Below, in pieces: positions 4,270-55,835 of a DNA stretch of 64,000 bases; positions within the stretch are counted from its first letter, which is position 1, and every line of letters starts with the position of its first letter. The position numbers were made by a program, and so were the translations under genes. Origin of the DNA: a virus; the IMG/VR virus record IMGVR_UViG_3300007512_000029, positions 1-64,000 of that record, one strand, 5' to 3'. The notes under the pieces were generated by a model. The model was not told where the DNA came from, ran no database searches, and saw only the letters and a list, made by a program, of their open reading frames with translations.

Positions 4270-4274
4270 TAGAT

Positions 4275-4314
4275 TTCCTATAAGGCTCGTAATCTATTAC
4301 GAGCCTTATAGGAA
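4275..4314. promoter_or_regulatory. perfect 19-bp inverted repeat (operator candidate)
   Basis: Two 19-bp arms (4275-4293 and 4296-4314) are exact reverse complements with a 2-bp centre. The right arm overlaps the -10 region and spacer of the promoter for the ParB-like gene. Perfect symmetry of this length is the usual form of a dimeric repressor or ParB-type site. Confidence 0.6.
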
Positions 4315-4321
4315 AAGTCCC
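4294..4321 (-). promoter_or_regulatory. phage TCGTA-type promoter for the ParB-like gene
   Basis: Minus strand GGGACTTTTCC, spacer, CTCGTAATAG: a variant of the shared promoter in which the -10 reads TCGTAATA. It overlaps the 40-bp palindrome. Confidence 0.5.
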
Positions 4322-4776: not shown

Positions 4777-4800
4777 TATACGACCAGGGAGGGAAGTTTA
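4777..4800 (-). promoter_or_regulatory. phage TCGTATA promoter for the small tRNA/ncRNA unit
   Basis: Minus strand TAAACTTCCC, spacer, TCGTATAG. It serves no protein gene: the transcript runs through the tRNA-like element, the mini cloverleaf and the Val tRNA to the terminator at 4356. Confidence 0.7.
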
Positions 4801-14370: not shown

Positions 14371-14373
14371 AAG

Positions 14374-14461
14374 TGACCGGGGCGGGAGTCGAACCCGCAC
14401 GCCCATACAGGGCACTAGCTTCTGAGGCTAGCGTGACTACCTAAAATTCCACCACCCGGCC
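14374..14461 (-). tRNA. tRNA-Leu (CAG)
   Basis: Acceptor GGCCGGG/CCCGGTC, anticodon stem CTAGC/GCTAG with loop CTCAGAA, long variable arm, T arm GCGGG/CCCGC, discriminator A. Confidence 0.9.
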
Positions 14462-22493: not shown

Positions 22494-24602
22494 ATGCCAA
22501 AGAACCCAGAAAAGACGGCGGCTTTCGGGCGCGGGCTCGATATCGGTACGATGAATCTGATCGCCGCTCAGCGGGTGGGGGATGCGGTTCAGCACAAGCG
22601 GATGAGGGATGCCTTCCTGGCCTTGGACCTCTCCGCCAAGAAGATGCTCAAGCTGACCGGGGCGGACTTCGTTGAGAGAGAGGAGGAGCTGTTGATCCTC
22701 GGGGACGCCGCTCTCAATCTCGCCAATGTCTTCGGTCAGGAGGCCCGGCGACCTCTGGACCAGGGGCTCATCTCCACGGGAGAGATCGACGCCCTGGAGG
22801 TGCTGGGGATCATGATCAAGAGCCTCCTTGGCGAGCCCTCGGAGGTCAATGAGGTGTGCTGCTTTTCGGTCCCGGCGCCGCCGAGGGATGCCCCTGACCG
22901 GGATATCATCTATCACCAGGGGGTCTTTGAGCAGATCGTCTCGGAGTGTGGCTATGACGCCATCGCGAGCAATGAGGCGATGGCGATCGTCTACTCGGAG
23001 TGTGCTCCCGAGCTGTTCAGCGGGTTGAGCTTCAGTTTCGGGTGCCTGACTCCCGAGGTCCCCATCATCACTCGGCGGGGTCTTGTCCCCATTTCTTCTG
23101 TGAAAGAAGGTGAGGAGGTTCTAACACGAGCTGGGGTGTATAGCCGGGTGGCGAAAACCTGGACACGAGAGCATGAGGGCTTGGTGTTCCAGATTCGGTT
23201 TGAGGGCAACCCGGATGGGGTCACTTTGACGGGAAATCATCGGGTCTGGGTGCAGAAGCCCGGCGGTTGGTCCTGGGTTGCTGCCGAAGATTTGCAGAAG
23301 GGCGATATTATTGGGGAGCCTGTCATCTCTGGGTATGGACGACGGCGGGTTTTGGGTTTGAAGGAGAAAACGGCCAACGGTCTGACGCGAAGCAAGAACG
23401 TAGACTGGTCTATGAAAATGGGTCGTTTCCTGGGCTACTTTCTTGCTGATGGGCACTTGGGTCCAGAGGATAGGAACACGATTTGGTTCGACTTCGGGCC
23501 GGATGAGCAGGAATTCGTAGACGACTTGGCTGGCATCGCGGATGGTGTCCTGAACCGGTCGGTGAGCGTTTCTCAGCACGGGAATGCTCTGCGGTGTCAG
23601 ATGAGTCACAAGAGCCTCTGCCGGTGGCTTAGGAAGCATTGCTATACGGAAGAGGGCTCCAAGAGTTTCCCGCTCAACATCGAAGACCTTCGCCCTGGTG
23701 TCGTAGAGGGCATCCTGGTTGGCCTTATCCGTGGAGATGGGTGGTCACATCACGGCGAGCACAAGTCTCTTCACTTGAGCAACACCAGCCCGTCCCTCAT
23801 CATAGCCTGCCATCTTCTGTTGGGTAGAATGGGGTTGACGAGTACCGTGACTCGTAGGGATCCAAGAGGGTCTACCTTCAAGGACGGGCGGGAGATCTCC
23901 CCAGAGAACTGCAAGTCGGAGTGGGCTGTCCACGTTACTGGAATTGACGGTCAGTACCTCTACAACATTATCCATGACTACAAGGGAGAACGCCGTGCCC
24001 CACGAGTCTGGAAGGACGGGGGGTTCCGATGCACCAAGATTCGGGAAGTTACGGCGGTGTCTTATGAGGGTCCAGTCCATGACTTGACCATTGACGGAGA
24101 TCCGTCATTCTGTGCCCCCTACATCACTATGCACAACTCAGGGATGACCAACGTGGCTCTCGCGGTGAACACGATCGAGGGGCTCACGTTCAGCGTCGCC
24201 CGAGGGGGTGACTGGATTGACGGCGGAGCAGCGAAGTCCTTGGGGACTACTCGGTCTCGGATGTGCGGGATCAAGGAGCAGGGGTTGGACCTGATGAACC
24301 CCCAGGGGCGAGAGCAGAAGGCTCTGGCTCTCTATTACAAGAGCCTGATCAATTACGTGATCGGTCAGGTGGGCCAGCAGTTCAAGGCGGTCGCCGGCCG
24401 GTTTGAGATGCCCACTCCGATTCCAATCGTCTTGTCTGGGGGTACCAGCCTCGCCGGGGGCTTCCGGGACTTCTTTGAGCAGGTATTCAAGCAGCAGCGG
24501 CGATTCCCGATTCCGATCAGTGAGATTCGGATGGCGGCGGATCCCTTGAACGCTGTGGCGAATGGTCTCCTGGTTCAGGCGATGCAGGAATACGCGGACT
24601 GA
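22494..24602 (+). CDS. actin-like ATPase (ParM/StbA type) interrupted by an intein
   Basis: 702 residues; about 337 remain after splicing. The exteins show actin-fold sites: phosphate 1 LDIGTMN (residues 15-21), phosphate 2 FSFG/SGMTNVAL, adenosine loop VLSGGTSLAGG. Such proteins form filaments that segregate plasmids or phage DNA. The intein (residues 184-548) sits in the phosphate-2 loop, so the ATPase cannot work until it splices. The gene is surrounded by virion genes, so it could alternatively be a PilM-like scaffold. Confidence 0.8.
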   Translation: MPKNPEKTAAFGRGLDIGTMNLIAAQRVGDAVQHKRMRDAFLALDLSAKKMLKLTGADFVEREEELLILGDAALNLANVFGQEARRPLDQGLISTGEIDALEVLGIMIKSLLGEPSEVNEVCCFSVPAPPRDAPDRDIIYHQGVFEQIVSECGYDAIASNEAMAIVYSECAPELFSGLSFSFGCLTPEVPIITRRGLVPISSVKEGEEVLTRAGVYSRVAKTWTREHEGLVFQIRFEGNPDGVTLTGNHRVWVQKPGGWSWVAAEDLQKGDIIGEPVISGYGRRRVLGLKEKTANGLTRSKNVDWSMKMGRFLGYFLADGHLGPEDRNTIWFDFGPDEQEFVDDLAGIADGVLNRSVSVSQHGNALRCQMSHKSLCRWLRKHCYTEEGSKSFPLNIEDLRPGVVEGILVGLIRGDGWSHHGEHKSLHLSNTSPSLIIACHLLLGRMGLTSTVTRRDPRGSTFKDGREISPENCKSEWAVHVTGIDGQYLYNIIHDYKGERRAPRVWKDGGFRCTKIREVTAVSYEGPVHDLTIDGDPSFCAPYITMHNSGMTNVALAVNTIEGLTFSVARGGDWIDGGAAKSLGTTRSRMCGIKEQGLDLMNPQGREQKALALYYKSLINYVIGQVGQQFKAVAGRFEMPTPIPIVLSGGTSLAGGFRDFFEQVFKQQRRFPIPISEIRMAADPLNAVANGLLVQAMQEYAD
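23043..24137 (+). mobile_element. intein with LAGLIDADG endonuclease in the actin-like gene
   Basis: 365 residues. Starts with Cys (CLTPEVPII), has a block-B-like TGNHRVWV, two LAGLIDADG-type motifs (FLGYFLADGHL and ILVGLIRGDGW) and ends HDLTIDGDPSFC... MHN before Ser+1. All splice residues (C1, HN, S+1) are present, and the acidic residues of both endonuclease motifs are kept, so it appears able to splice and home. Confidence 0.9.
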
Positions 24603-35800: not shown

Positions 35801-35808
35801 TCTGGGGT

Positions 35809-35839
35809 CTCTCGATCTGCTTAAATAGCGGATCGAGAG
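35809..35839. promoter_or_regulatory. 9-bp hairpin bordering the repeat array
   Basis: CTCTCGATC/GATCGAGAG with a 13-nt AT-rich loop, immediately after the last clean repeat and 22 bases before the DnaA boxes. It may be a leader, terminator or origin element. Confidence 0.4.
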
Positions 35840-35860
35840 GGTAGTTTTCGAGCGGGTTAC

Positions 35861-35881
35861 TTATGCACAGGGTTATCCACA
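35861..35881 (+). promoter_or_regulatory. two DnaA-box sequences (origin candidate)
   Basis: TTATGCACA (35861-35869) and TTATCCACA (35873-35881) both fit the bacterial DnaA consensus TTATnCACA and lie 3 bp apart in the same direction. They sit at the point where the two transcription halves of the window converge. Confidence 0.5.
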
Positions 35882-35951
35882 GGTTGTGGGGGGACTCTGG
35901 GGCTGTCAAAGATCGGGATTCTCTTGGAATCCTGGTAGGTTACTTCCGCGC

Positions 35952-35988
35952 GAGCGGGTCCTGGGTTTCAGGCACCACGGACCCGCTC
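35952..35988 (-). terminator. 10-bp hairpin after the 36 kb operon
   Basis: GAGCGGGTCC/GGACCCGCTC, 12 bases beyond the stop of the 79-residue gene; ends the minus-strand operon before the origin-like region. Confidence 0.5.
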
Positions 35989-36000
35989 GAAAGGGCGGGG

Positions 36001-36240
36001 CTACCCCAGCTTGGGATGGGGCTTGTTCACGGTAAACTCCAGGTCCGGGATCTCCTGGGAGATGGCTGCGATTGCCTCTCGGGCTTCCTTGGCGGACTCG
36101 GAGATGGTATCGGGGAAGTGATCCTCGATGGGCCCTACTTGTCGCTCCCAGGTAGCCGTAAGAGCCAACCCGGTGGCTTCCAACTGGCCGATCGCCTCGG
36201 AGATCTTCGTGAGCTGGAGAGTGAGGAAGGCGGCGTTCAT
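36001..36240 (-). CDS. small helical protein
   Basis: 79 residues, helical throughout, no recognised domain. Overlaps the upstream gene by 4 bases; last gene of the 36-37 kb operon. Confidence 0.6.
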   Translation of the reverse strand: MNAAFLTLQLTKISEAIGQLEATGLALTATWERQVGPIEDHFPDTISESAKEAREAIAAISQEIPDLEFTVNKPHPKLG

Positions 36241-38013: not shown

Positions 38014-39744
38014 TCACACTCCCGCCATTTGCTCAGCCGCCGTGATCCCGATGACCTGGACTCCGTACTTTCGAGCCTTCTTCGCCTTCCCACTGTCGGC
38101 GGTGGGGTCGCTGGCGACGAGGTAGGTCAGGGACCTGCTGACCCCGGACTTCATCACGCCCCCGAGGCCCTCAATCGCCCGCTCCAGGTTGGAGTCACGG
38201 AAACCGGTGAAGCAGAAGCTCTTACCCTTCAGGGGGCCGGTCACCGGGGCCTTGATCGTGATCCCAGCCAGAAGGAGATGGTTGATGATCTCTTCGCGAT
38301 CCCGGAGACCGTTGACGAATTCCCGAGCCTTCCTGGTCCCCACGCCGGGGATGGAAGCGATCTCCGCCTCGGTAGCCATCTCCATCTTCGGGAGGGTGTC
38401 GTAGCCCGCCTGGACGATCTTCTGGCACATGGAGCGAGCCATCATGGGAATCCCCAGCGACCCGATGAGCAGGTGAAGCGGGAGGTCGGTCAGCTTCATC
38501 AGGTTGTCGTGAGCGATCTGGACCTTCCGACCCAAACGGGTCCCGTTCCCGTCCCGAATCTGCGTCGCCTTGGACAGGTTGAGCACATAGAGGTCCGCGG
38601 GCTCTCGGATGAGCCCGGCCTCGTAGAGAGGGACGATGATCCCATCACCCCAGCCCTTGATATCGAGCTTGGAGGTCCAGCGGTCAATCGCCCCGGCTCC
38701 CTGAGCCGGGCAGTTGTCGCCCAGACACTTCAGGAAGGCCCCGACCATCGTCAGCTTGCCGGAGCAGGAGGGACAGTCCGTGGGCTGACTCTGGAAGATG
38801 GGGGCGGCGTCGGTGGTCGCCTTGACCCACTTCTCCACCTTGGGGATCACGTCCCCGCGGCGAGAGACGAAGATGGTGTCTCCGATCGCGAAAGCGGGCT
38901 TCCCACTCTTGTGGAGGAGGTCTCCGATGATTCCCCAATTGGCGAGGGAGGCCCTCTTGACACTGGCTCCCGAGAGGACGACTTCCTTGAACACCGCGAC
39001 GGGGGTAACGATCCCGGTCGGGCCGACCTGATTCTCGATCCCCTCAAGAATCGTGTTGGCGGCGTCAGCCGTGAACTTGAACGCAGTGGAGCCCACCGGC
39101 CCCCGACCGCTGGTGCCCAGGCTGTCGAAGAAGTCCCGATCATCCTCCTCGTAGATCAGCCCATCGATATCGTAGTCGAGGGTTGCCCGCTTGGTGTCCT
39201 GGTACTCCTTGTGCCACGCCAGGGCATCGGGGAGATCGATGAAGCACTCCCAGGCTGGGGTCCGGAAGCCCAGCCGCTCCAGCAAGCGGAACTCGACTCG
39301 CTTGCTGGCGATCTTCCTCCCGCCGTCTCGCCGGATCTCGTAGGCGATGACGGTGAGATGCTGATTGTCCGACCGAGCGGAGTCCTCACGCTTGGCGATG
39401 CCCACCGCTCCGTTGCGAGGGTTCACCATCGTGGGAAAGTGAGCCTTCCAGTCGCTCTTGAGGAGCACGATCTCCGCTCGGATGAAGCCGGTGAAGCCCG
39501 GGATCACCTTCACGAGCCCCTTCATCAGCTTCACGTTCTCGGTGATATCGACCCCGACCATCCGGCCGGTCTGGGGATCCTTCTTCCCCCGGGTCACCCC
39601 TCGGGCGAGGCTCCCGTTCTCGTAGTAGAGAGCGCAGTTGTGAGCCAGGGCTCCGCTGCCGACAAAGTAGGCGTGAGTGTCCTTGACTTCCATGTCATAG
39701 GCCACCCGCTCTCCGGGGACTCTCTCGACGCTGACGACTCTCAT
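38014..39744 (-). CDS. ligA: C-terminal half of split DNA ligase, led by a split-intein C fragment
   Basis: 576 residues. Residues 1-36 are a split-intein C part (block F YDMEVKDTHAYFVGSG, block G ALAHN, Cys+1 at 37). From residue 37 it continues NAD-dependent DNA ligase: CALYYENGSLARGVTRG and KKDP of the adenylation domain, OB-fold, the four-Cys zinc finger (CPSC... CLGDNC, about 285-310), helix-hairpin-helix repeats (IPGVGTRKA) and a C-terminal BRCT domain (GKSFCFTGFRDSNLERAI). The active Lys lies in the other gene at 43575-44261, so this half needs trans-splicing to work. It has its own promoter at 39814 and AGGA before the ATG. Confidence 0.9.
   Translation of the reverse strand: MRVVSVERVPGERVAYDMEVKDTHAYFVGSGALAHNCALYYENGSLARGVTRGKKDPQTGRMVGVDITENVKLMKGLVKVIPGFTGFIRAEIVLLKSDWKAHFPTMVNPRNGAVGIAKREDSARSDNQHLTVIAYEIRRDGGRKIASKRVEFRLLERLGFRTPAWECFIDLPDALAWHKEYQDTKRATLDYDIDGLIYEEDDRDFFDSLGTSGRGPVGSTAFKFTADAANTILEGIENQVGPTGIVTPVAVFKEVVLSGASVKRASLANWGIIGDLLHKSGKPAFAIGDTIFVSRRGDVIPKVEKWVKATTDAAPIFQSQPTDCPSCSGKLTMVGAFLKCLGDNCPAQGAGAIDRWTSKLDIKGWGDGIIVPLYEAGLIREPADLYVLNLSKATQIRDGNGTRLGRKVQIAHDNLMKLTDLPLHLLIGSLGIPMMARSMCQKIVQAGYDTLPKMEMATEAEIASIPGVGTRKAREFVNGLRDREEIINHLLLAGITIKAPVTGPLKGKSFCFTGFRDSNLERAIEGLGGVMKSGVSRSLTYLVASDPTADSGKAKKARKYGVQVIGITAAEQMAGV
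39637..39744 (-). mobile_element. split intein, C fragment (36 aa)
   Basis: Length and motifs match natural split-intein C parts such as DnaE (about 36 residues): the YDM(E)V...HAYFVGSGALAHN pattern and Cys+1. Its partner is residues 131-228 of the gene at 43575-44261. Confidence 0.9.
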
Positions 39745-39813
39745 GGGCTGTTCCTATGTAGGAAAGCGTTCACCTTCTCCAGTACCCGAGAGGGACCACG
39801 CTTCCAATCTTCC

Positions 39814-43574: not shown

Positions 43575-43871
43575 CTACTCCCGGTTGTCGGTGACTTCCT
43601 TTCCAGCCAGGAAGCGGGCTTCCACCCACCCCTCTCCCTCGACGTGGAACTTGTGGTCCTCAGTCACGACTACGGTGGTGCCGTCCTCAAAGGTCAACTT
43701 GACCCAATTGTCCCGCACGCCGTTGTTGAACGTATTGGTCACCCGGCTGGTCGTGATCCCACCCTCCGGGCTCCAGGTCAGCACCTCGGGACGGAGGCCC
43801 TCCTCCACGATCTCCCGAATCGGGACCTGCTCCCCGTTGGCGAGATGGATGAGGGTACCGCCATCGAAGCA
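43575..43871 (-). mobile_element. split intein, N fragment (98 aa)
   Basis: Residues 131-228 of the ligase N-half; size and blocks A and B fit a natural split-intein N part (about 100 residues). No homing endonuclease domain is present in either half. Confidence 0.9.
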
Positions 43872-44261
43872 GGAGAAACCGTCGAGTTTTTCTGACCCTA
43901 CGATGCTGGGGAGCCTCCCCGGCCGCCTCGCGGCGTGGGTCTTCCACCAGCCCTCAAACTCTTTCGGGTTCTTAGACTTGTTCTGGCTCCCCATCGGAGC
44001 CGTGTGGGAGAACTTGCTGAAGCTGGTCGCTTCCAGCTCGTCCTCAGGATCGACGGCGTCCCCCCAGACCATGTCGAGGAATGCTCGACCTCCCTTCACC
44101 TCGGGCTTGTTGGGGCTGAACTTCTCAGCCAGCTCCAGGGCGATCTTGAACTTGTCGTAAGCGGCGTCATAGACCGCGTCGGATACCTCCGGGCTCCCCG
44201 CTCGGTAAGCGGCATTCCACTGGATAAGCTGGGCGAGCTGGGCTGCGATCTTGGACGCCAT
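43575..44261 (-). CDS. ligA: N-terminal half of split DNA ligase with a split-intein N fragment
   Basis: 228 residues. Residues 1-130: the helical N-terminal Ia domain of NAD-dependent ligase (DAVYDAAYDKF, residues 28-38), a KFSHTAPMGS segment and the active-site SEKLDGF with Lys 125. At Cys 131 a split-intein N fragment begins: CFDGGTLIHLANGEQVPI (block A), TEDHKFHVEGEG (block B) and it ends at 228. The rest of the adenylation domain is in the gene at 38014. Joining would give ...LDGFS-CALYYENG.... Promoter at 44284; AGAGGAG before the ATG. Confidence 0.92.
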   Translation of the reverse strand: MASKIAAQLAQLIQWNAAYRAGSPEVSDAVYDAAYDKFKIALELAEKFSPNKPEVKGGRAFLDMVWGDAVDPEDELEATSFSKFSHTAPMGSQNKSKNPKEFEGWWKTHAARRPGRLPSIVGSEKLDGFSCFDGGTLIHLANGEQVPIREIVEEGLRPEVLTWSPEGGITTSRVTNTFNNGVRDNWVKLTFEDGTTVVVTEDHKFHVEGEGWVEARFLAGKEVTDNRE

Positions 44262-44312: not shown

Positions 44313-45005
44313 TCAGTACCAGGAGGGGGATCTGGTGCCCTCACTCTCGATATCTTCGCGGACAGTCTTCTCAAAGGCGGCCTGCTCCTCCGGCTCCCAG
44401 CCTTCCAGGCCCTTCTCCAGGGGCTCGTAGGGCGGCGGGTAGGTCGTGGCCCCCTCGCTGAACTTCCGCCCCTTGAAGCCGATATGTCGAGCCCACAGGA
44501 GGTTCCGGAGGTTGATCAGGTGATCCAGGCTCTCGTTGTAGAAAGCCACCATCTTGAAGCCCACATAGACCCGGAGAGAGCCCATGAAGATGGCTCCAGC
44601 CACGCACCAGTTGAAGAGAGTGAGACTCCCGGAGTTGTCGGCCCCCGCGACGAGCCCCATGACGCCCGCGAGGACGGTACCGGCCAGGAAGCTGTAGCTG
44701 GCTCGGTGGTGCCGCTCGGCGTGGCCCTTGAGGTTCTCGACCTTTCGGCGGAACTCGCCCTCCATGTCCCGGGACCTGTTCGCCCGGGTGAGCAGGATCT
44801 TCATGGCGGCGACGAACGGAGGCCCCGGCGCCGCGTTGCACAGCTTGATCGCCCGATCGACGTTGTTCGCCATCACAAGCTTCTGGATCTGGGTGTAGAA
44901 CGCCTGGGCGTTGATCCGCTCCCGGAGATAGAACGGGACGAGTGAGAGGAGTGCTGCGAGGGAGAACCCGCCCAGCACGACGACGAAGGGGAGTAGCTGT
45001 TCCAT
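44313..45005 (-). CDS. MotA/TolQ/ExbB-like membrane protein
   Basis: 230 residues from the ATG at 45005 (nine bases after the -10; no ribosome site, so perhaps leaderless). Residues 5-25 are a transmembrane helix, then AIKLCNAAPGPPFVAAMKILL matches the cytoplasmic loop motif of ExbB/TolQ/MotA proteins, and two further helices (FLAGTVLAGVMGLVAG; LFNWCVAGAIFMGSL) follow. Those subunits form proton-driven stators; a phage copy could alter envelope energetics. No ExbD/TolR partner is next to it. Confidence 0.65.
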   Translation of the reverse strand: MEQLLPFVVVLGGFSLAALLSLVPFYLRERINAQAFYTQIQKLVMANNVDRAIKLCNAAPGPPFVAAMKILLTRANRSRDMEGEFRRKVENLKGHAERHHRASYSFLAGTVLAGVMGLVAGADNSGSLTLFNWCVAGAIFMGSLRVYVGFKMVAFYNESLDHLINLRNLLWARHIGFKGRKFSEGATTYPPPYEPLEKGLEGWEPEEQAAFEKTVREDIESEGTRSPSWY

Positions 45006-45012
45006 GATGGCG

Positions 45013-45038
45013 TATACGACCCGTCCCGAGAAACTTTC
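45013..45038 (-). promoter_or_regulatory. phage TCGTATA promoter for the ExbB-like gene
   Basis: Minus strand GAAAGTTTC (itself palindromic), spacer, GGTCGTATACG; the ATG follows within nine bases. Confidence 0.7.
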
Positions 45039-45049
45039 TCGGGAAAAGT

Positions 45050-45085
45050 GAAAGGGCCCCACACCAGCTTCCTGGGGGCCCTTTC
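45050..45085 (-). terminator. 11-bp hairpin ending the ncRNA
   Basis: GAAAGGGCCCC/GGGGCCCTTTC with a 14-nt loop, then ACTTTTCCC on the minus strand. It closes the transcript that starts at about 45340 just before the next promoter. Confidence 0.6.
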
Positions 45086-45340
45086 GGAGGTTTACAACCC
45101 CACAGGAAGTCAGTGGGGAGGGAGTAGACACGGCAAGCAAGAGAGGCTTACGGTCCCGGTCTGGAGTCCGTGCCACTCCAATTGATCGGGTTTTTCGCCT
45201 GTTAACTCAGATTTCTGGGAAACTCCTCGTCACCCCACCCGATCACCCCGGGTGGGCCCGGTCCCCGTCCAACGCAACGCCGCGGGGATGACAGCAGGTG
45301 ACCGATTTACCGCGAACGACTCATCAGGCGCCCTGCCGTG
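45086..45340 (-). ncRNA. structured noncoding RNA with its own promoter
   Basis: About 250 nt between the promoter at 45347 and the terminator at 45050, without a sensible reading frame. Its first bases, GTAGACACGGCA (45334-45345 region, minus sense), pair perfectly with TGCCGTGTCTAC at 45124-45135, closing the whole RNA. Inside, GATCGGGT/ACCCGATC (45184-45191 with 45237-45244) forms an 8-bp stem and GGAGT/ACTCC another. The layout, ends paired and hairpins within, is that of a functional RNA. Family unknown. Confidence 0.6.
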
Positions 45341-45346
45341 TCTACC

Positions 45347-45376
45347 TATACGAGGAGCCCCCGGATAATTTCCCCT
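45347..45376 (-). promoter_or_regulatory. phage TCGTATA promoter for the ncRNA
   Basis: Minus strand GGGGAAATTATCC, spacer, CTCGTATAGG. No protein gene follows for 300 bases. Confidence 0.7.
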
Positions 45377-45382
45377 GAAGCC

Positions 45383-45652
45383 TCAACTTTTCTTGTTGGG
45401 CTCTCTCGCTTCAACTTCTGTCCGGAGCTGGAGGCTGAGAGCCTCCCCCATGACCAGATAGTAATTGAAGCCCAGCCACTCCCCGGAGTCATTGACCACT
45501 CGGGTCTTCTCCAGCCGCGTCCCGGCGGGGATCTCCTCCCCCTGCCCCCACTTCCCGAGGAGGCGGTCTACCAGAGCCATGAGGCCGGCGTTGTCTACCG
45601 ATTCAGGGCTCTCCCCTTCCTCCGCCCTGGCGTCCATGACGAGCAGCCTCAC
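45383..45652 (-). CDS. small hypothetical protein
   Basis: 89 residues, no recognised domain. Overlaps the upstream gene by 4 bases and ends 7 bases before the ncRNA promoter. Confidence 0.6.
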   Translation of the reverse strand: MRLLVMDARAEEGESPESVDNAGLMALVDRLLGKWGQGEEIPAGTRLEKTRVVNDSGEWLGFNYYLVMGEALSLQLRTEVEAREPNKKS

Positions 45653-48601: not shown

Positions 48602-49380
48602 GGTTTGCGTGCTGTTAACACACATTCCCATGCCGGTTTTAACGCCGTCCCCCAGCCATCCCATGCAGCGGCTTCCGGTGTCCGGTGGACCTTGTCCGGC
48701 CTGTAGTCCGCCTTCAACCCGTTCTTCGCCTTTCCCGTAGCCCCACCCTTGTCCAGAGCGACTCGGTCTACAGAGGGGCCATGTCCTTGTACTGAACGAG
48801 GGTTGCCAAGGAAACGGTCGATCGCCTTGGAGATGTTGTGTGATTTGGGAAAGCCATTGGCAAAGGCCCACGACCTCATTTCCACATCCCGGAAGCCGGC
48901 CCCCTCCATTGCTGCCGCGAGCCGATGGAAGGTCCGAGTCCCGCTGAAAGCCACCACGTAGCCTCCCGGGACGAGCTTGTCATAGACCGCCTTCAACCAC
49001 CGCTGATGCCACAATTGCATCTGCTGGGCTTGTTTCCTAGCGACTTTCTGACCAAGCTGGTGACCAGAGACAACCGGCTCACCACCCACTCGCCAATCTG
49101 GGTCCTCGCAGGAACACTTACGTGACCCCCGTAGACGACCTCCACAGGTAGCACACGTCGGGTTCGACCCACCGAAGGAAGTAGTCCCCCCAAACGCCGG
49201 CCAGGGGATCTCTCGATCACCTATCCCCGGTTGAGCCATTCCGCTGCCTGTCTCCCAGAGACGATCCCACTCTTTCCCCATGAATTCAAGCCCATACGGC
49301 GGATCCGTCAGAACCAGACCGATTTCGGGGACCTCCTCCAACCGGGCTAGGTTGTCTCCTTTCAGGAGGAGAACCCTCAT
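48598..49380 (-). CDS. N-terminal half of a split beta-class DNA methyltransferase
   Basis: 260 residues. Starts with TDPPYGLEFMGKEWD (catalytic motif IV at residues 26-29), then CATCGG and CSC cysteines, LVPGGYVVAFSGTRTFHRLAAAMEGAGF, and ends WDGWGTALKPAWECVLTARKP just before the stop. Motif I and the PTVKP region are missing here and are found in the gene at 46024. Homologues I know are continuous across ...LARKPL..., so this looks like a gene broken at that point with three genes now between the parts. Confidence 0.8.
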   Translation of the reverse strand: MRVLLLKGDNLARLEEVPEIGLVLTDPPYGLEFMGKEWDRLWETGSGMAQPGIGDREIPWPAFGGTTSFGGSNPTCATCGGRLRGSRKCSCEDPDWRVGGEPVVSGHQLGQKVARKQAQQMQLWHQRWLKAVYDKLVPGGYVVAFSGTRTFHRLAAAMEGAGFRDVEMRSWAFANGFPKSHNISKAIDRFLGNPRSVQGHGPSVDRVALDKGGATGKAKNGLKADYRPDKVHRTPEAAAWDGWGTALKPAWECVLTARKP

Positions 49381-50909
49381 GACTTGCCCAGCCCGTCGAG
49401 GATCGCCTGATCAATCTCGGCTCCGAGATCTTCGGCCTCACTCATCGCGGTCTCCTTGAGGGTCAAGATTCGCCTCTGGGGGAACACTACCCGGGCCTTG
49501 AACGGATCTGGCTTCGCGTGGTCTCTCGCCTTGAGAGTCTGGAAGAGAACCTCGTTGGCTTTCTCCAGGTCTGGATCCACCCAGGATGCCGTGACGATAT
49601 CTGAAGACCGCTCGGCCTCGTTGCTATAGCTGAGGTGAGTCAGGTTGTAGGGGTACTCGCTGCCGGCCTTACGGAGCTTCTCAGCCGCTTTGTAGCCCTC
49701 CCGGGAGATCTGGAAGAGGACCACGATAGCGATCCCCATACCCCGGCGGAAGTTCATCGACAGCCGCTTGAGGTTCCTCAAAACCTCGTTGAGCCGCTCC
49801 GTGGTGCTCGGGACCCACTTCCGCGGAGCCATGAGGCCGGCGTGATCGACGAAGATCATGTGGAAGGGACTCTGCTGGTAAATCAACTCCGCCCGAGCCC
49901 GAAGGTCCGAGACCATGTAGTCAGATTTATCCGGGTCGCTGACCTCAATGTGGAGAGCCCCATATCCGGGGTGGGTCTTCTTCTTCGGATCGAGAGGATC
50001 CGGACACACGTAGTCCCCGTTGAGATCCGGGACGACGTAGTTTCGGAAGAAGTCCTCCTGCTCGTCAGTGAGGGAGCCGTCTCGGAGCCCCATGTAGGGG
50101 ATGGGCGGGTGGATCTTCTTGAACTTCTCGTGTCGCGAGTGCATCGCGATGAGCATGTTCCGACACTGCTCGTAGGGCATCTCCAGAGAGAGGAAGAGGA
50201 CGCTGTTCCGGTAGAACACCGTTTGGTTGTAGGCCCAATTGAGGGCGTAGGTGCTCTTGAGGCCGCCTGTAAAGGCGGCGTGCGTCCACAACTCCGCTCG
50301 CTTGGCTCCCTTGAACGCCTCGTCGAATTGGGTGATCCCGGTGAAAAACCCGACCCCGGCTTTGGGGTCCGCCTTCACACGATCATATCGGGCGAGAGAG
50401 TCGTGACCGTCGCTGGTCACGTTGCCGTAGAGTCGCTGCCCCGTCGTCGGGGTCACAATGTCATGACTCCTCGACATGACATACTGGATGGCGTGGTATG
50501 GGCCCTTGAGGATCTTCTCAACCCGCCCTTCTTTGAGCGTGATCCCGTCCTTCACGATCCTGGCGGCTTCCGTCAGGATCTCCTTCATCGTTCGGGTTCG
50601 CCGGTCCTCCGCCCTCTCGTTGAGCCGCTGAAGAAAATCTCCCTGATAGCGAGGGGTCATCGCGATCAAGTGTTCCAGCCGGTCTACTACCTCCATCTCT
50701 TTCTGGCGGGTGAAGTGCTCCCGCAGAGAGGTGTAAGCAGGGACATGCTGGTGCTGTCGGACAAAATCCGACAGGTAGGTCCAAATCGCGGTGTCCTCGA
50801 CCTGCTCGAAACCCAGACCAGCGTTCGCGAGAGCGAAATGGTTCTCTAGAGCGAGGGCTTTGTCGTCCCTCGGATTTGCCGTGAAACACGACCTGAGCAG
50901 GATCTTCAC
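49377..50909 (-). CDS. DnaB-like replicative helicase
   Basis: 510 residues. N-terminal helical domain, then a RecA-like core: FTGITQFDEAF, a Walker A with degenerate sequence FTGGLKST, SLEMPYEQ (the SLEM motif of DnaB), VDHAGLMAP (Walker B region) and FQISREGYKAAEK. These order as in DnaB/gp41. The P-loop has GGLKST rather than GxxxxGKT, as in several phage helicases. Start overlaps the loader-like gene by 4 bases. Confidence 0.85.
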   Translation of the reverse strand: MKILLRSCFTANPRDDKALALENHFALANAGLGFEQVEDTAIWTYLSDFVRQHQHVPAYTSLREHFTRQKEMEVVDRLEHLIAMTPRYQGDFLQRLNERAEDRRTRTMKEILTEAARIVKDGITLKEGRVEKILKGPYHAIQYVMSRSHDIVTPTTGQRLYGNVTSDGHDSLARYDRVKADPKAGVGFFTGITQFDEAFKGAKRAELWTHAAFTGGLKSTYALNWAYNQTVFYRNSVLFLSLEMPYEQCRNMLIAMHSRHEKFKKIHPPIPYMGLRDGSLTDEQEDFFRNYVVPDLNGDYVCPDPLDPKKKTHPGYGALHIEVSDPDKSDYMVSDLRARAELIYQQSPFHMIFVDHAGLMAPRKWVPSTTERLNEVLRNLKRLSMNFRRGMGIAIVVLFQISREGYKAAEKLRKAGSEYPYNLTHLSYSNEAERSSDIVTASWVDPDLEKANEVLFQTLKARDHAKPDPFKARVVFPQRRILTLKETAMSEAEDLGAEIDQAILDGLGKS

Positions 50910-51733
50910 TTCTTACGCCTCCTCTCCCACGGCTTCTTTTTCTTCTTGCTATCCGAATCGAGACCAAGATCTACGTTGACGGCTCGGGTCCCTCCCGTAG
51001 ACCTCGCGAACCTCGGGTCAGTGGCCGCGGAAGGACGCGGCGGGCCCCCCACACTTGGCTCGAAAGCCATCTCTTCATAGCCCCGAGAGGGCTTCCGAAC
51101 CGAAGGTGTCCGAGACTGCCCGTAGACTCGCTCCCAACCCCGGACGAAATCTCCAACCAGATGGTCATAGGAGAGGTGCCCGTCTTCCAGCGGGTAGTTC
51201 GGCTGATCTACTATCCAGGTAGGGTTGCCTGCGTGGAGCCGGAGCATCAGGGCTTCCAGAAAGACCTCCGCCATCGCGGAGTTGCGAGCCGCCTTGACCC
51301 CGAGGTAGATGACCAGCAGTTCAGCGGGGGCGACCAGATCTTCCAGGGAGTAGTGAGACGCGGTGACCACCATCGCATCCGGGTCAAAGATCTCTGCTCC
51401 TTTGACCGCGTGGCTGGCTAACCACGCCGTCATGAGCTGGGCGTCCGTGACTACCTGAAACGACCAGGATGGGGGCCGGCGGATCGCGACATGCCTCATG
51501 TGCTCCACGAACCAGCCACGGGGAGCGGTGATCCAGGTGTTCTTCTCGACCCGCTCCGTGAGTGGGCTGCTTGGAATCGGGTCGGCTTTCAGAAGGCCGG
51601 GCATTCCTCGTTCCACATTTCGCTTGATCGCCTCCCGAAGGCGGCAACCACACCGCTGGACGACTGGTGGCACGAGTCCCTCTTGAGGGACTGGAACGAC
51701 ACCAGCCCCTCCACATACGACACACTCAGCCAT
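50906..51733 (-). CDS. helicase-loader-like protein with zinc motif
   Basis: 275 residues. An N-terminal CVVCGGAG and CGCR metal site, then a region like DnaC/DnaI-type loaders (DLVAPAELLVIYLGVKAARNSAMAEVFLEALMLR) but without a Walker A loop, and a basic SKKKKKPWERRRKK tail. Sits directly upstream of the DnaB-like gene and overlaps both neighbours, which supports a loader role. Confidence 0.6.
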   Translation of the reverse strand: MAECVVCGGAGVVPVPQEGLVPPVVQRCGCRLREAIKRNVERGMPGLLKADPIPSSPLTERVEKNTWITAPRGWFVEHMRHVAIRRPPSWSFQVVTDAQLMTAWLASHAVKGAEIFDPDAMVVTASHYSLEDLVAPAELLVIYLGVKAARNSAMAEVFLEALMLRLHAGNPTWIVDQPNYPLEDGHLSYDHLVGDFVRGWERVYGQSRTPSVRKPSRGYEEMAFEPSVGGPPRPSAATDPRFARSTGGTRAVNVDLGLDSDSKKKKKPWERRRKK

Positions 51734-54700
51734 CGCTACCTCCAGCGCGAGCGTCTTCTACCAGCCCGTCAAAGACTTCCCGAAGCTCGTTGATCTCCTC
51801 GATAATCTCCTCGTTCTCCTCTTCTTCGTCCCCCTCCCCTTTGATCCTCTTCCCGAGGATAGCTTCGACCAGCTTGAGCTTCTTCCGACAGGTCCCCAGA
51901 GTCCGCTCATCCACGGTCCCCCGTGCAATCAGGTGGATCGCATAGACCATGTCATGCAAGATCCCGATCCGAATCATCCGACCGAGAATCTGCAAGTAAA
52001 TCCCAGCCGACCAGGGCGTGTCCAGAAAGACGATCGCCTTCGCTGCCTGGAGATTGATGCTATCGGAACCCGCCTTGGTAATCCAGACGATATTCACCCC
52101 GGAATCGTGAGCCTGGAAGGCGTCCATCGCAGCCTGTCGAGCCGCGATGGTGTTCTCATCTCCGGTCACCCGGACTGACTTGACCTTGAGCTTCTTCTCC
52201 AGCCAGGGCTTCCCGAAGTTCACCATCTCCTTGAATCGGGTGTAGATGATGACCTTCTGACCTTCCAACTCCCCGCCCGGAGCCAGGAGGTCAGCCAACA
52301 CGTCCAGCTTCTCAGACGTCTCCTCGTCGAAGCCGATGAGGCAGGGGTGATTCACAATCTCCTGGCAGTAGGTGATCGCGGTGAGATGCGTGGTCTCTCT
52401 CAGCTCACCGTCTCCAACCTCCAGCAACCCCTCCAACGCCTCCGCGTATTTAGCCGCCTGGAAGGAGGTGAGCCCGTGGCGGATTTCTTTGATCTGAAGC
52501 GGCGGGAGATCCTGCGCTACCTGGAACTTCGCCCTTCCCAGGTGGAAGGGGTCGATCTTGGCCTTGAACCGAGCGATATCCTTCGGCCGATACCCTCGGA
52601 TAACCGGGACCTTCCTGCCTCGACCGATCGGCTGCATCTGGACGATGCAGTAGTCGTTCATAAAGGCGTTCCGGCTGTGGGTAAACAACCCAGGGACCAG
52701 CACCTTCATGATCCCAAACCCTTCCATCAGGTTGTTCTGAATCAGCGTCGCTGTCATTCCCCAGACGCGGTTTGCCCTCTCCACCCCCCCGAGGTGCCTC
52801 ATGATCTGGTGAATCTGAGACGACGGATTCTTGAACGCCTGACAGTTTGACACCAGGGTGCCGTTGGCAAAGAAATTGTGGTTACCTTCGACCTCCAAGT
52901 CATAGACATATCGGTCTTTCTTGGGGTCAGATGGAACCCAAGTTCCGGTCTCTGTGACCCAATCCAGAATTGTTCTTTGCTGGGGACGGGTGTCAAAGTC
53001 GGAAGCCCTGGCACAAGTCTTTTCAGGAAACTTGTACATGACTCCAGGAAACCCACATGGAAGCAGGTTCAGGAACACTGATGTTGCTTGGTCATTGAGA
53101 TAAAGGAGGAGGTGCCCTCTCTTAGACACCTTGATTTGTGCCTTGACCCCCCACTTCCACCACAACCACCCAGCCAACAGCTCAACCTCGCCCCTGTCAA
53201 ACCCACTTGTATGGAGTGTGACTCGGCGGGTCCTACCGTCTTTGCAAACGTGCTCATTCAGGGAGCCGTCATCGGCATACCACACAGCCAAACCAAGAGG
53301 CCCAACATGATTTAGCCAAGAGGCTGTGATCCTCTTACCACCTTGCCAAACGCGGTTCTGCACCGCCCAAGAAGTGACAGCCTCATTGGTTTGGAGCTTG
53401 AATCGAGCATAACCCTTCGGCTGTCCGTCTGTTCTAGGGAAGCCGCCGTTGGCTGATGTGTCTACCTCCGACACCCCCAGAGACTTCAAGATTTCTCGCT
53501 TGAAAATCAGGTAGTCCTTCTGGACCTCAGAATGGCCGAAGGCCACTCCGACCCGGACGTTGTTTGGATAGGCTAGACTGGAGTCCCCCAACAAAGCCCC
53601 GAAAATGACTTGCCATTGATCCTCAGAAGGGACATTTGAGCAGAGGTGTTGTACCTTGGAGCCTTCTTTGAGACGACTCGCCAGAACCTTTCCTCCCTCG
53701 GGGGTATAGAACTTGTGGGTGCTGGTGACACGAAGCCGTCCCCCGAACCGAAAACCGAGATGGAGTAGGTTTCTTCTCCGGCCCCTTTGGAAGGGAACCC
53801 GATGCCAATCAACAACTCTCTTCGGCTCGACCTCTCCTGTTTCTGGGTTCCAAGAAAGAACCTCAACAGGTAATTTCTGAGAGACAATCTTCCCGATTAA
53901 CTCGGTACTACCGTCCGCTAGGAGGACGGGGGTGTGGTACTGGAAGCACTCATCTGCGATGAGGATGTAGTCTTGCCACCCCTGCATCTGCCGGAAGTCC
54001 CGCCGGACAGACCCGTAGCCCATAACCAGGACCGGATAGCGATCCTTCTCCTGCCAAGCCTTATATGCCTTCTTCCTCTTCACGGGGGTCCCCGCGGAGA
54101 CGACCGGATCGACCACCCGGGTGAAATTCTTAAAAGCGAGAGCCCACTGAGTGACAGCGGACTTGTTGCAGATAATGATCACTTTGCGAGTGGGATCCTC
54201 GATTTCCCAGAGGAAGCAGAGGGCCGCGATCACCTCTAAGGTGTTGTGGTTGACTAAGCCGTTACCCACGAAGCAGTGGCGGGGGTCATCCACCTCAATG
54301 TCCACAACCTCCTTGAACCCGGTTTTGATGGATTCGATGGGGTCGTAGAAAAACCTCCGTGATAGAAGCTTTTCGATGCCCTTATAGGCAGGGTGGTCCT
54401 TAGCCACCCCCACCTCGTAGGCCACCTCCAGCATCCACTCCAGAAACCCGTAGGTAGGGTTCCTGCGCCTAGCCCGGACGTGGGTGAGCGTGTTGTAGAA
54501 GGAGGACCCCCATCGAGTGCTAATCGAGAACCCATGCTTCTTGCAGCCGACAAGAATCTCCGACCGCAACAGCTCGACAGCACCCCAAGCGAACGGGACA
54601 ATATCGTGGTTGGGGTTGGACTTGTTCGGGATGGCTCCCGCCAAACTACTCTTCTTACGAGAGGAGATGAAACCCACCTCGGCCTCGAAAATCCGGGCGT

Positions 54701-55835
54701 CCTCCCCGAACATTGTGAGCCGCCAGTAGGTGTGGTCGCGACCCTGGACCATCTTGGGGGAACGATTGGAGACGATTCCCAGGCGCAAGAGGAGGAGTTG
54801 AACCTCTCGAAGAAGCCTCTCAGAGGCGGAGCTGATCTCCACACCACCAGAAACAACGGACCCCTCTCCCTCAAACAGACCTCGGAGGAACGCTACCTGT
54901 GAATCCCGGGTCCCGATCATGACGGGGTCAGGAACGCGCTTGTCAGCGGGCAAGCCGTAGTCCACCCCCATCCCCTCCAGATACTTGCGGAGGTAGACGC
55001 TATCGATCCGCATCTCTTTCTGGTCGGACTCCTTGCCCCATCCGAACTGCTCCGCCAGGAGCCCCTGAATGTCTCGATGAACCGCTGGATTCTTCTCGGG
55101 ACACTGCGAGATAGTGAACACGTAGGGGTGATTCACCCAGGCTTCCCCCACGATGTATCCGAGCAAACGGGCTAGGCTCGGGTTGAGCTGCGTAGGGACA
55201 GAATACACCTTGGCGTTAGGGGCCACGGTGGGGAGCCGGAGCGGGGGCTCCTCGTCGGGGAACTGCGTAGGAGTCCTGTCCACGCAGAGGTAGTCCCCGA
55301 CTTCCAGTTCTCCTGTCTTGATGAACTGCTCTCCCGTGATCCCCCTCACGAACAGAGGGTGGACCAGTGAGCCCTCAACCTCGAATCCGTAGCGGCTCCG
55401 CACCCTCCGGGTCGGCTTGTTCCCGCAGTAGTAGAAGCTCTTGACCAGGACCATGTCGGACCCGATCCGAACCTGAACCCCAGAGCCCTCCAGGGAGGCG
55501 AAGGAGTCGGGGTCCATAGGACCCGGCTGGAGATCCCCGATGGGGACCAGCCCCCTATTGGTGTCCAGCAGGGTGTCTTTCGTGACGCACTTACCCAAGC
55601 CCGTGTCGTCCCCCACCAGGAACCTCTTCATGGAGAGGAGATGGACGACCATCTGGGCCTGATAGTAGCGGAGGGAGAAAGGCTTCTCGGTCCCGTCTAG
55701 TGCCTTGTACGAGGGCACCATCAGCGACGAGGCCCGGAGAACCAAGTCCTCTTTCTCCCGGACAGCTTTCAGCTTCTCATAAGTGGCAGCCAGTACGGGA
55801 TCCATAAGCCTCCTCGGGACCCCTCCCTCTACCAC
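51726..55835 (-). CDS. SNF2-type DNA helicase/translocase with two inteins
   Basis: 1369 residues, about 552 after splicing. Exteins: RYYQAQMVVHLL, P-loop DDTGLGKT (completed after intein 1), a motif Ia-like VIIICNKSAVTQWA, DEC(Q) box ADE/CQAFKN (completed after intein 2), TATL motif III, then helicase C with KVIIYTRFKEMV, KAGSDSINLQ and GRMIRIG (motif VI). The C-terminus is acidic and helical. Inteins cut both the P-loop and the Walker B box, so ATPase activity depends on two splicing events. Confidence 0.85.
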   Translation of the reverse strand: MVEGGVPRRLMDPVLAATYEKLKAVREKEDLVLRASSLMVPSYKALDGTEKPFSLRYYQAQMVVHLLSMKRFLVGDDTGLGKCVTKDTLLDTNRGLVPIGDLQPGPMDPDSFASLEGSGVQVRIGSDMVLVKSFYYCGNKPTRRVRSRYGFEVEGSLVHPLFVRGITGEQFIKTGELEVGDYLCVDRTPTQFPDEEPPLRLPTVAPNAKVYSVPTQLNPSLARLLGYIVGEAWVNHPYVFTISQCPEKNPAVHRDIQGLLAEQFGWGKESDQKEMRIDSVYLRKYLEGMGVDYGLPADKRVPDPVMIGTRDSQVAFLRGLFEGEGSVVSGGVEISSASERLLREVQLLLLRLGIVSNRSPKMVQGRDHTYWRLTMFGEDARIFEAEVGFISSRKKSSLAGAIPNKSNPNHDIVPFAWGAVELLRSEILVGCKKHGFSISTRWGSSFYNTLTHVRARRRNPTYGFLEWMLEVAYEVGVAKDHPAYKGIEKLLSRRFFYDPIESIKTGFKEVVDIEVDDPRHCFVGNGLVNHNTLEVIAALCFLWEIEDPTRKVIIICNKSAVTQWALAFKNFTRVVDPVVSAGTPVKRKKAYKAWQEKDRYPVLVMGYGSVRRDFRQMQGWQDYILIADECFQYHTPVLLADGSTELIGKIVSQKLPVEVLSWNPETGEVEPKRVVDWHRVPFQRGRRRNLLHLGFRFGGRLRVTSTHKFYTPEGGKVLASRLKEGSKVQHLCSNVPSEDQWQVIFGALLGDSSLAYPNNVRVGVAFGHSEVQKDYLIFKREILKSLGVSEVDTSANGGFPRTDGQPKGYARFKLQTNEAVTSWAVQNRVWQGGKRITASWLNHVGPLGLAVWYADDGSLNEHVCKDGRTRRVTLHTSGFDRGEVELLAGWLWWKWGVKAQIKVSKRGHLLLYLNDQATSVFLNLLPCGFPGVMYKFPEKTCARASDFDTRPQQRTILDWVTETGTWVPSDPKKDRYVYDLEVEGNHNFFANGTLVSNCQAFKNPSSQIHQIMRHLGGVERANRVWGMTATLIQNNLMEGFGIMKVLVPGLFTHSRNAFMNDYCIVQMQPIGRGRKVPVIRGYRPKDIARFKAKIDPFHLGRAKFQVAQDLPPLQIKEIRHGLTSFQAAKYAEALEGLLEVGDGELRETTHLTAITYCQEIVNHPCLIGFDEETSEKLDVLADLLAPGGELEGQKVIIYTRFKEMVNFGKPWLEKKLKVKSVRVTGDENTIAARQAAMDAFQAHDSGVNIVWITKAGSDSINLQAAKAIVFLDTPWSAGIYLQILGRMIRIGILHDMVYAIHLIARGTVDERTLGTCRKKLKLVEAILGKRIKGEGDEEEENEEIIEEINELREVFDGLVEDARAGGSDG
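52845..53948 (-). mobile_element. intein 2 in the SNF2 gene (motif II site)
   Basis: 368 residues (630-997). Begins CFQYHTPVLLADG, carries VTSTHKFY (block B), two LAGLIDADG-like motifs (IFGALLGDSSL and GLAVWYADDGSL) and ends FFANGTLVSN before Cys+1. The host residues form the DEC(Q) box. The terminal Asn is preceded by Ser rather than His. Confidence 0.88.
54243..55589 (-). mobile_element. intein 1 in the SNF2 gene (Walker A site)
   Basis: 449 residues (83-531). Begins CVTKDTLLDTNRGLVPI after GLGK, with LLGYIVGEAWV and LRGLFEGEGSV as endonuclease motifs and CFVGNGLVNHN at the end before Thr+1. Insertion directly after the catalytic P-loop Lys is a well-known preferred intein site. Confidence 0.9.

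What the first reader, a model, noticed from the sequence alone, without database searches (positions are those of the whole stretch)
45050..45376. New noncoding RNA with closed ends
A promoter, about 250 nt of non-coding sequence whose ends pair over 12 bp, two more internal stems and a terminator form a complete RNA gene between protein genes. It lies directly upstream of the ExbB-like gene and may also modulate it.
Basis: seen in the sequence. Interest (0 to 1): 0.7.

Follow-up and report, generated by a model that had tools for sequence, protein, structure and literature searches.

The report
Phage noncoding transcript, ends not closed
Between two genes of a huge-phage fragment there is a real phage promoter that drives about 295 bases of non-coding RNA into a terminator, but the 'closed-end' fold that made it look special is no stronger than chance and half of it probably is not even transcribed.

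Summary
The unit is real. A phage-specific promoter (TCGTATA at 45353-45347, minus strand; box at 45371-45363) reads into non-coding DNA that ends in an 11-bp terminator hairpin (45085-45050). A matrix trained on 14 other phage promoters ranks it 14th of all sites in the window. No frame there has coding character.

The 'closed ends' claim fails. Perfect 12-bp inverted repeats with 20-400 nt between the arms are expected 2.7 times per 64 kb by chance; 3 are seen. Across 26 promoters the start site falls 8 nt after TCGTATA, so the RNA should begin at A45339, leaving six of the 12 pairs untranscribed. From that start the closing stem has probability 0.01 and the fold is ordinary (z -0.8 core, -1.3 full).

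It is not simply a leader of the ExbB-like gene, which has its own leaderless promoter (45019). One unusual feature is a long hairpin competing with the terminator (P about 0.003-0.02, post hoc), hinting at regulated termination. No homologue was found, so covariation could not be tested.

Seen in passing, and more striking: a covarying family of tRNA-like RNAs in huge phages with an extra two-helix domain, sometimes circularly permuted (window 4748-4590, 12653-12490, 13669-13515, minus strand).

The parts
45347..45371 (-). phage-class promoter of the unit: box AAATTATCC (45371-45363) and TCGTATA (45353-45347)
   Evidence: position matrix trained without it; pattern specific to this phage
45044..45339 (-). 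predicted non-coding transcript, about 295 nt, from A45339 to the U tract after the terminator
   Evidence: start-site signature of 26 promoters; no coding frame; ends inferred, not measured
45334..45345 (-). 5' arm of the 12-bp inverted repeat; its outer six bases lie upstream of the predicted start
45124..45135 (-). 3' arm of the 12-bp inverted repeat
45050..45085 (-). terminator-like hairpin, 11 perfect pairs, followed by ACUUUU
   Evidence: sequence
45056..45119 (-). alternative long hairpin that overlaps and excludes the terminator hairpin
   Evidence: (I1)
45013..45037 (-). separate leaderless promoter of the ExbB-like gene (box 45037-45029, TCGTATA 45019-45013; overlaps palindrome 45024-45044)
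44313..45005 (-). downstream gene called ExbB-like; orphan, all-helical, family not established
45383..45652 (-). upstream small ORF, last gene of the operon above; no terminator seen between it and the promoter

Best explanation
It is a short untranslated transcription unit of a huge phage. The phage's own promoter class starts an RNA at about A45339; the RNA carries no gene and ends about 295 nt later at an intrinsic terminator just before the promoter of the next gene. The same terminator probably also closes the operon above, since none is seen between ORF 45383-45652 and the promoter. Most likely use: a promoter-attenuator cassette. Most transcripts stop near 45045, and refolding of 45119-45056 would let some read on into the ExbB-like, ligase and helicase genes; the stopped RNA is a by-product or acts in trans. 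Promoter, lack of coding and both hairpins are shown by computation; start site, termination and the switching are inferred. It is not a closed-end RNA.
For: Promoter matrix and phage specificity; start-site signature and leaderless genes; no coding character; 11-bp terminator hairpin; competing hairpin at -28.9 against -35.5 kcal/mol, reached by 0 of 1000 and 1 of 400 shuffles of the upstream 35 nt, with a gap that small in 0.3% and 2%; eight other hairpin tests in the window have gaps of 14-29 kcal/mol.
Against: No transcript data. No homologue, so no covariation test. The competing hairpin was noticed after the fact. The next gene has its own promoter and no visible Shine-Dalgarno, so read-through RNA may be poorly translated. 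The U tract is short (four U).
Confidence: 0.4

Rival explanations
1. A trans-acting phage small RNA gene: the roughly 295-nt RNA itself is the product and acts on phage or host RNAs or proteins.
For: Own promoter and terminator, no coding frame, separate promoter for the next gene.
Against: Fold is ordinary from the predicted start; no homologue and no known RNA family; base-pairing targets were not searched.
Confidence: 0.27
2. Promoter and terminator at a module boundary without a functional RNA: the unit is 3' untranslated sequence of the operon above, or the remnant of a lost gene, and its RNA does nothing.
For: Orphan sequence, ordinary fold, no terminator seen between ORF 45383-45652 and the promoter.
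Against: The promoter is well formed and the 3' hairpin arrangement is unusual.
Confidence: 0.23
3. One reading: an RNA gene closed by a 12-bp end stem with internal stems.
For: Fold of 45350-45120 has z -2.5 and forms a 15-bp stem; chance of such a repeat within this one region is 0.004. Read-through RNA from the operon above would contain the whole stem.
Against: The start-site signature puts the 5' end inside the arm; such a repeat is expected 2.7 times per window; inner part has z -0.39 and the closing stem probability 0.01 from the predicted start.
Confidence: 0.08
4. The two 12-bp copies are inverted binding sites for a DNA-binding protein, one over the promoter start region and one 210 bp downstream (looping repression).
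For: One copy overlaps the region between TCGTATA and the start.
Against: No further perfect copy of the 12-mer in the window; near copies are not at promoters.
Confidence: 0.02

Closest known systems
Transcription attenuator leaders (terminator/antiterminator pairs)
   Same: Untranslated RNA upstream of a gene on the same strand, terminator hairpin and a mutually exclusive alternative hairpin
   Different: The next gene has its own promoter of the same class and no visible Shine-Dalgarno; no ligand, leader peptide or homologue known
Phage small RNA genes and 3'-UTR-derived small RNAs
   Same: Non-coding unit with own promoter and intrinsic terminator, placed directly behind an operon
   Different: No target, no conservation and no expression data here
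Large structured RNAs with a closing stem found in phages and bacteria (such as GOLLD, ROOL, 6S)
   Same: Long non-coding region in a phage with a possible end-to-end helix
   Different: No Rfam match and the closing helix is not supported

Membership tests
Independent small RNA gene | Dedicated promoter | tested here: met
   21.6 bits with a matrix trained without it
Independent small RNA gene | Intrinsic terminator | tested here: inconclusive
   11-bp hairpin with ACUUUU; short U tract; not found by the consensus scan
Independent small RNA gene | No open reading frame with coding character | tested here: met
   Codon scores
Independent small RNA gene | A stable transcript exists | not testable with these tools
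   No expression data
Closed-end structured RNA | End-to-end helix beyond chance and inside the transcript | tested here: not met
   2.7 expected and 3 seen per window; half upstream of the predicted start; probability 0.01
Closed-end structured RNA | Covariation among homologues | not testable with these tools
   No diverged homologue found
Attenuator leader | Mutually exclusive terminator and antiterminator | tested here: inconclusive
   P about 0.003-0.02 against shuffles, post hoc
Attenuator leader | Downstream gene depends on read-through | tested here: inconclusive
   Sequence argues against: own leaderless promoter 8 nt before ATG 45005
Any of 4227 Rfam families | Match at the family's gathering score | tested here: not met
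   Best weak match rli56 at 21.1 bits against a cut-off of 47
tRNA-like RNA with two-helix insert (family found here, model R2) | Match to the covariance model | tested here: not met
   The three full members in the window are at 4.7, 12.5 and 13.5 kb; nothing at 45.0-45.4 kb

The most novel reading that the evidence does not exclude
A new phage-specific regulatory RNA in which an untranslated leader controls read-through at a terminator placed between two promoters of the same phage class, or a new orphan class of structured phage RNA.
Probability: 0.13. Interest if true: 0.5.

Novelty: new member of a known kind. Interest (0 to 1): 0.3.

Why it matters
As a single non-coding unit in one phage lineage it is of modest interest. 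The check did yield by-products: a phage-specific promoter class with a predicted start site and several leaderless genes, which lets transcription units of this uncultured huge phage be read from sequence, and a widespread family of unusual, sometimes permuted tRNA-like genes in huge phages (see Noticed in passing), which deserves its own study.

Tried and rejected
Hammerhead ribozyme: CUGAUGAG is present but no GAAA strand in place, and no Rfam match. RNase P, 6S, tmRNA: no Rfam match. Hidden small gene: no coding frame; the in-frame extension of the next gene up to GTG 45176 scores -0.10, lower than 90% of real gene windows but not below the lowest 5%, and the leaderless promoter fixes the start at 45005. 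Homologues: DNA search of phage records, exact stem pattern in viral contigs and a single-sequence covariance model on 58 records: nothing beyond near-identical contigs; a single-sequence model is insensitive, so this is weak evidence of absence. Synteny through the next gene: no relatives. Sister RNA at promoter 4783: it turned out to be a permuted tRNA operon, not a relative. The first competing-hairpin test used a wrong constraint and is superseded. One alignment used wrong coordinates for the second row and was not used.

Full report
Setting. The window is part of a 70.7-kb virus record. Its replicative helicase (49377-50909, minus) is 51% identical to one in a 485-kb uncultured phage, LR745208.1, and 59 related loci in IMG/VR include many phages of 100-512 kb, so this is very probably a huge-phage fragment. 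Only two near-identical contigs carry the locus.

Promoter. TCGTATA recurs upstream of genes. A matrix from 14 such sites, leaving out the one in question, finds a box close to AAGTTTCC, about nine bases, then TCGTATA. It ranks the site at 45353 (minus) 14th in the window at 21.6 bits; the best site of nine of ten Markov-shuffled windows reached 14.8-16.9 and of one 24.2. The simple pattern occurs 11 times on the minus strand and never on the plus strand of the record, with no match to the reversed control, and is not enriched in distant relatives. In 26 promoters the eighth base after TCGTATA is A in 16 and a purine in 23, preceded by a pyrimidine in 20; several genes have their ATG exactly there. 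The start of the RNA is therefore predicted at A45339, and many genes of this phage are probably leaderless. This is inference from sequence, not a measured start.

Body. No frame between about 45060 and 45360 has coding character. The 12-bp repeat is real, but perfect 12-bp inverted repeats with 20-400 nt between the arms are expected 2.7 times per 64 kb and occur three times. Within one chosen 377-nt stretch the probability is 0.004, so it is notable only if this region is singled out beforehand. Six of the 12 pairs lie between TCGTATA and the predicted start. The fold of 45350-45120 has z -2.5; the predicted transcript has z -0.76 (core) or -1.34 (with terminator), against a mean of -0.85 for 319 windows of the same strand, and the closing stem has probability 0.01. 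The closed-end description is thus not supported, unless the RNA starts further upstream, for instance by read-through from the operon above.

3' end. An 11-bp perfect hairpin (45085-45050) followed by ACUUUU on the minus strand is a plausible terminator. The 35 nt upstream can instead pair with its loop and 3' arm in a long hairpin (-28.9 against -35.5 kcal/mol). Shuffling those 35 nt reaches that energy in 0 of 1000 and 1 of 400 trials, and so small a gap in 0.3% and 2%. The other hairpins tested have gaps of 14-29 kcal/mol. This resembles an attenuator, but it was noticed after the fact.

Neighbour. The gene called ExbB-like has its own promoter at 45019 with its ATG exactly at the leaderless position, and no visible Shine-Dalgarno sequence. 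It has no Pfam match at E = 10 and a poor all-helical model, so the name is not established. A simple leader role is unlikely; regulated read-through is possible.

Relatives. A covariance model from the single sequence found only the three near-identical copies among 58 records, an exact stem pattern found only a known contig, and Rfam has no match.

Side result. Reading the second non-coding promoter (4783) revealed a circularly permuted tRNA gene: the T arm and 3' acceptor strand come first, then the 5' acceptor strand, D arm and a CAU anticodon arm. Rejoined, ARAGORN reads a complete tRNA. Two more tRNA-like genes carry a long insert before the T arm that ends in ACAAGCAU. A pattern search, an alignment and a covariance model (R2) show that this is a family in huge phages, with up to 15 matches per record (some of these are only T-arm matches). 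Among 54 distinct sequences the covariation score is 0.56 against 0.19 in shuffles, reached by 0 of 500; the alignment was fitted to the model, but sliding the partners destroys the signal. Of 49 members checked, 41 score as in order and 4 as permuted, the latter including at least one doubtful case in L135. In the window's permuted gene and the two in L084 the two flanks pair as the second helix of the insert, so the permutation point is the loop of that helix. ARAGORN and Rfam's gathering scores miss the window's three; in other phages Rfam's tRNA model catches two members, and there are sub-threshold resemblances to tRNA-Sec, tmRNA and the Y RNA-like YrlA. Permuted tRNA genes are described from algae and archaea (PMC3978253, PMC3218864); I found no paper on them in phages, in a library that lacks most subscription journals and all preprints. 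The finding's own RNA is not a member.

Verdict. A genuine but ordinary-looking non-coding transcription unit; its reported closed-end structure does not survive. Interest is modest, and the tRNA-like family seen on the way is the more promising lead.

Noticed in passing
window 4748-4590, minus strand (promoter at 4783): Circularly permuted tRNA gene: T arm and acceptor 3' strand upstream of acceptor 5' strand, D arm and CAU anticodon arm; rejoined it is a complete tRNA cloverleaf for ARAGORN. The two flanks pair (TGGTCGGGC / GCCCGACCA). No report of permuted tRNA genes in phages was found.
   Followed up: partly
window 12653-12490 and 13669-13515, minus strand; L084, L107-L121 and other huge-phage loci: Family of tRNA-like genes with an extra two-helix domain before the T arm, ending ACAAGCAU; 54 distinct sequences covary strongly, several copies per phage, some permuted with the break in the loop of the second helix. 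Many anticodon loops lack U33. Possibly an intron, a two-piece RNA or a tRNA mimic; weak resemblance to YrlA and tmRNA.
   Followed up: partly
whole window, for example 45019, 17558, 10040 and 7284 (minus strand): Phage-specific promoter class: box ~AAGTTTCC, about 9 nt, TCGTATA, start 8 nt later; several genes have their ATG exactly at the start site and are probably leaderless.
   Followed up: yes
window 43575-44261 and 38017-39753, minus strand: NAD-dependent DNA ligase apparently split by a split intein: N half ends in an intein start (CFDGGTLIHL...), C half begins with an intein end (...GALAHN|C); a helicase gene lies between them.
   Followed up: partly
window 51729-55805 (minus) and 22494-24599 (plus): Intein with LAGLIDADG domains in a SNF2-like helicase, and another in a protein that matches Volactin at E = 1e-65; an actin-like protein of that family in a huge phage is unexpected.
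   Followed up: no
window 4274-4315: Perfect 20-bp palindromic hairpin TTTCCTATAAGGCTCGTAAT with a 2-nt loop, next to the end of the tRNA operon.
   Followed up: no
window around 35801-36016, minus strand: Most strongly folded stretch of the minus strand (z about -9), with inverted copies of TTTCGAGCGGGT / CGAGCGGGTCC.
   Followed up: no
window 14373-14461 and 15598-15590 region, minus strand: ARAGORN reports a tRNA with a four-base anticodon (cacg), and further tRNA-like genes at about 15180, 14200 and 13755 (minus) are missed by it.
   Followed up: no
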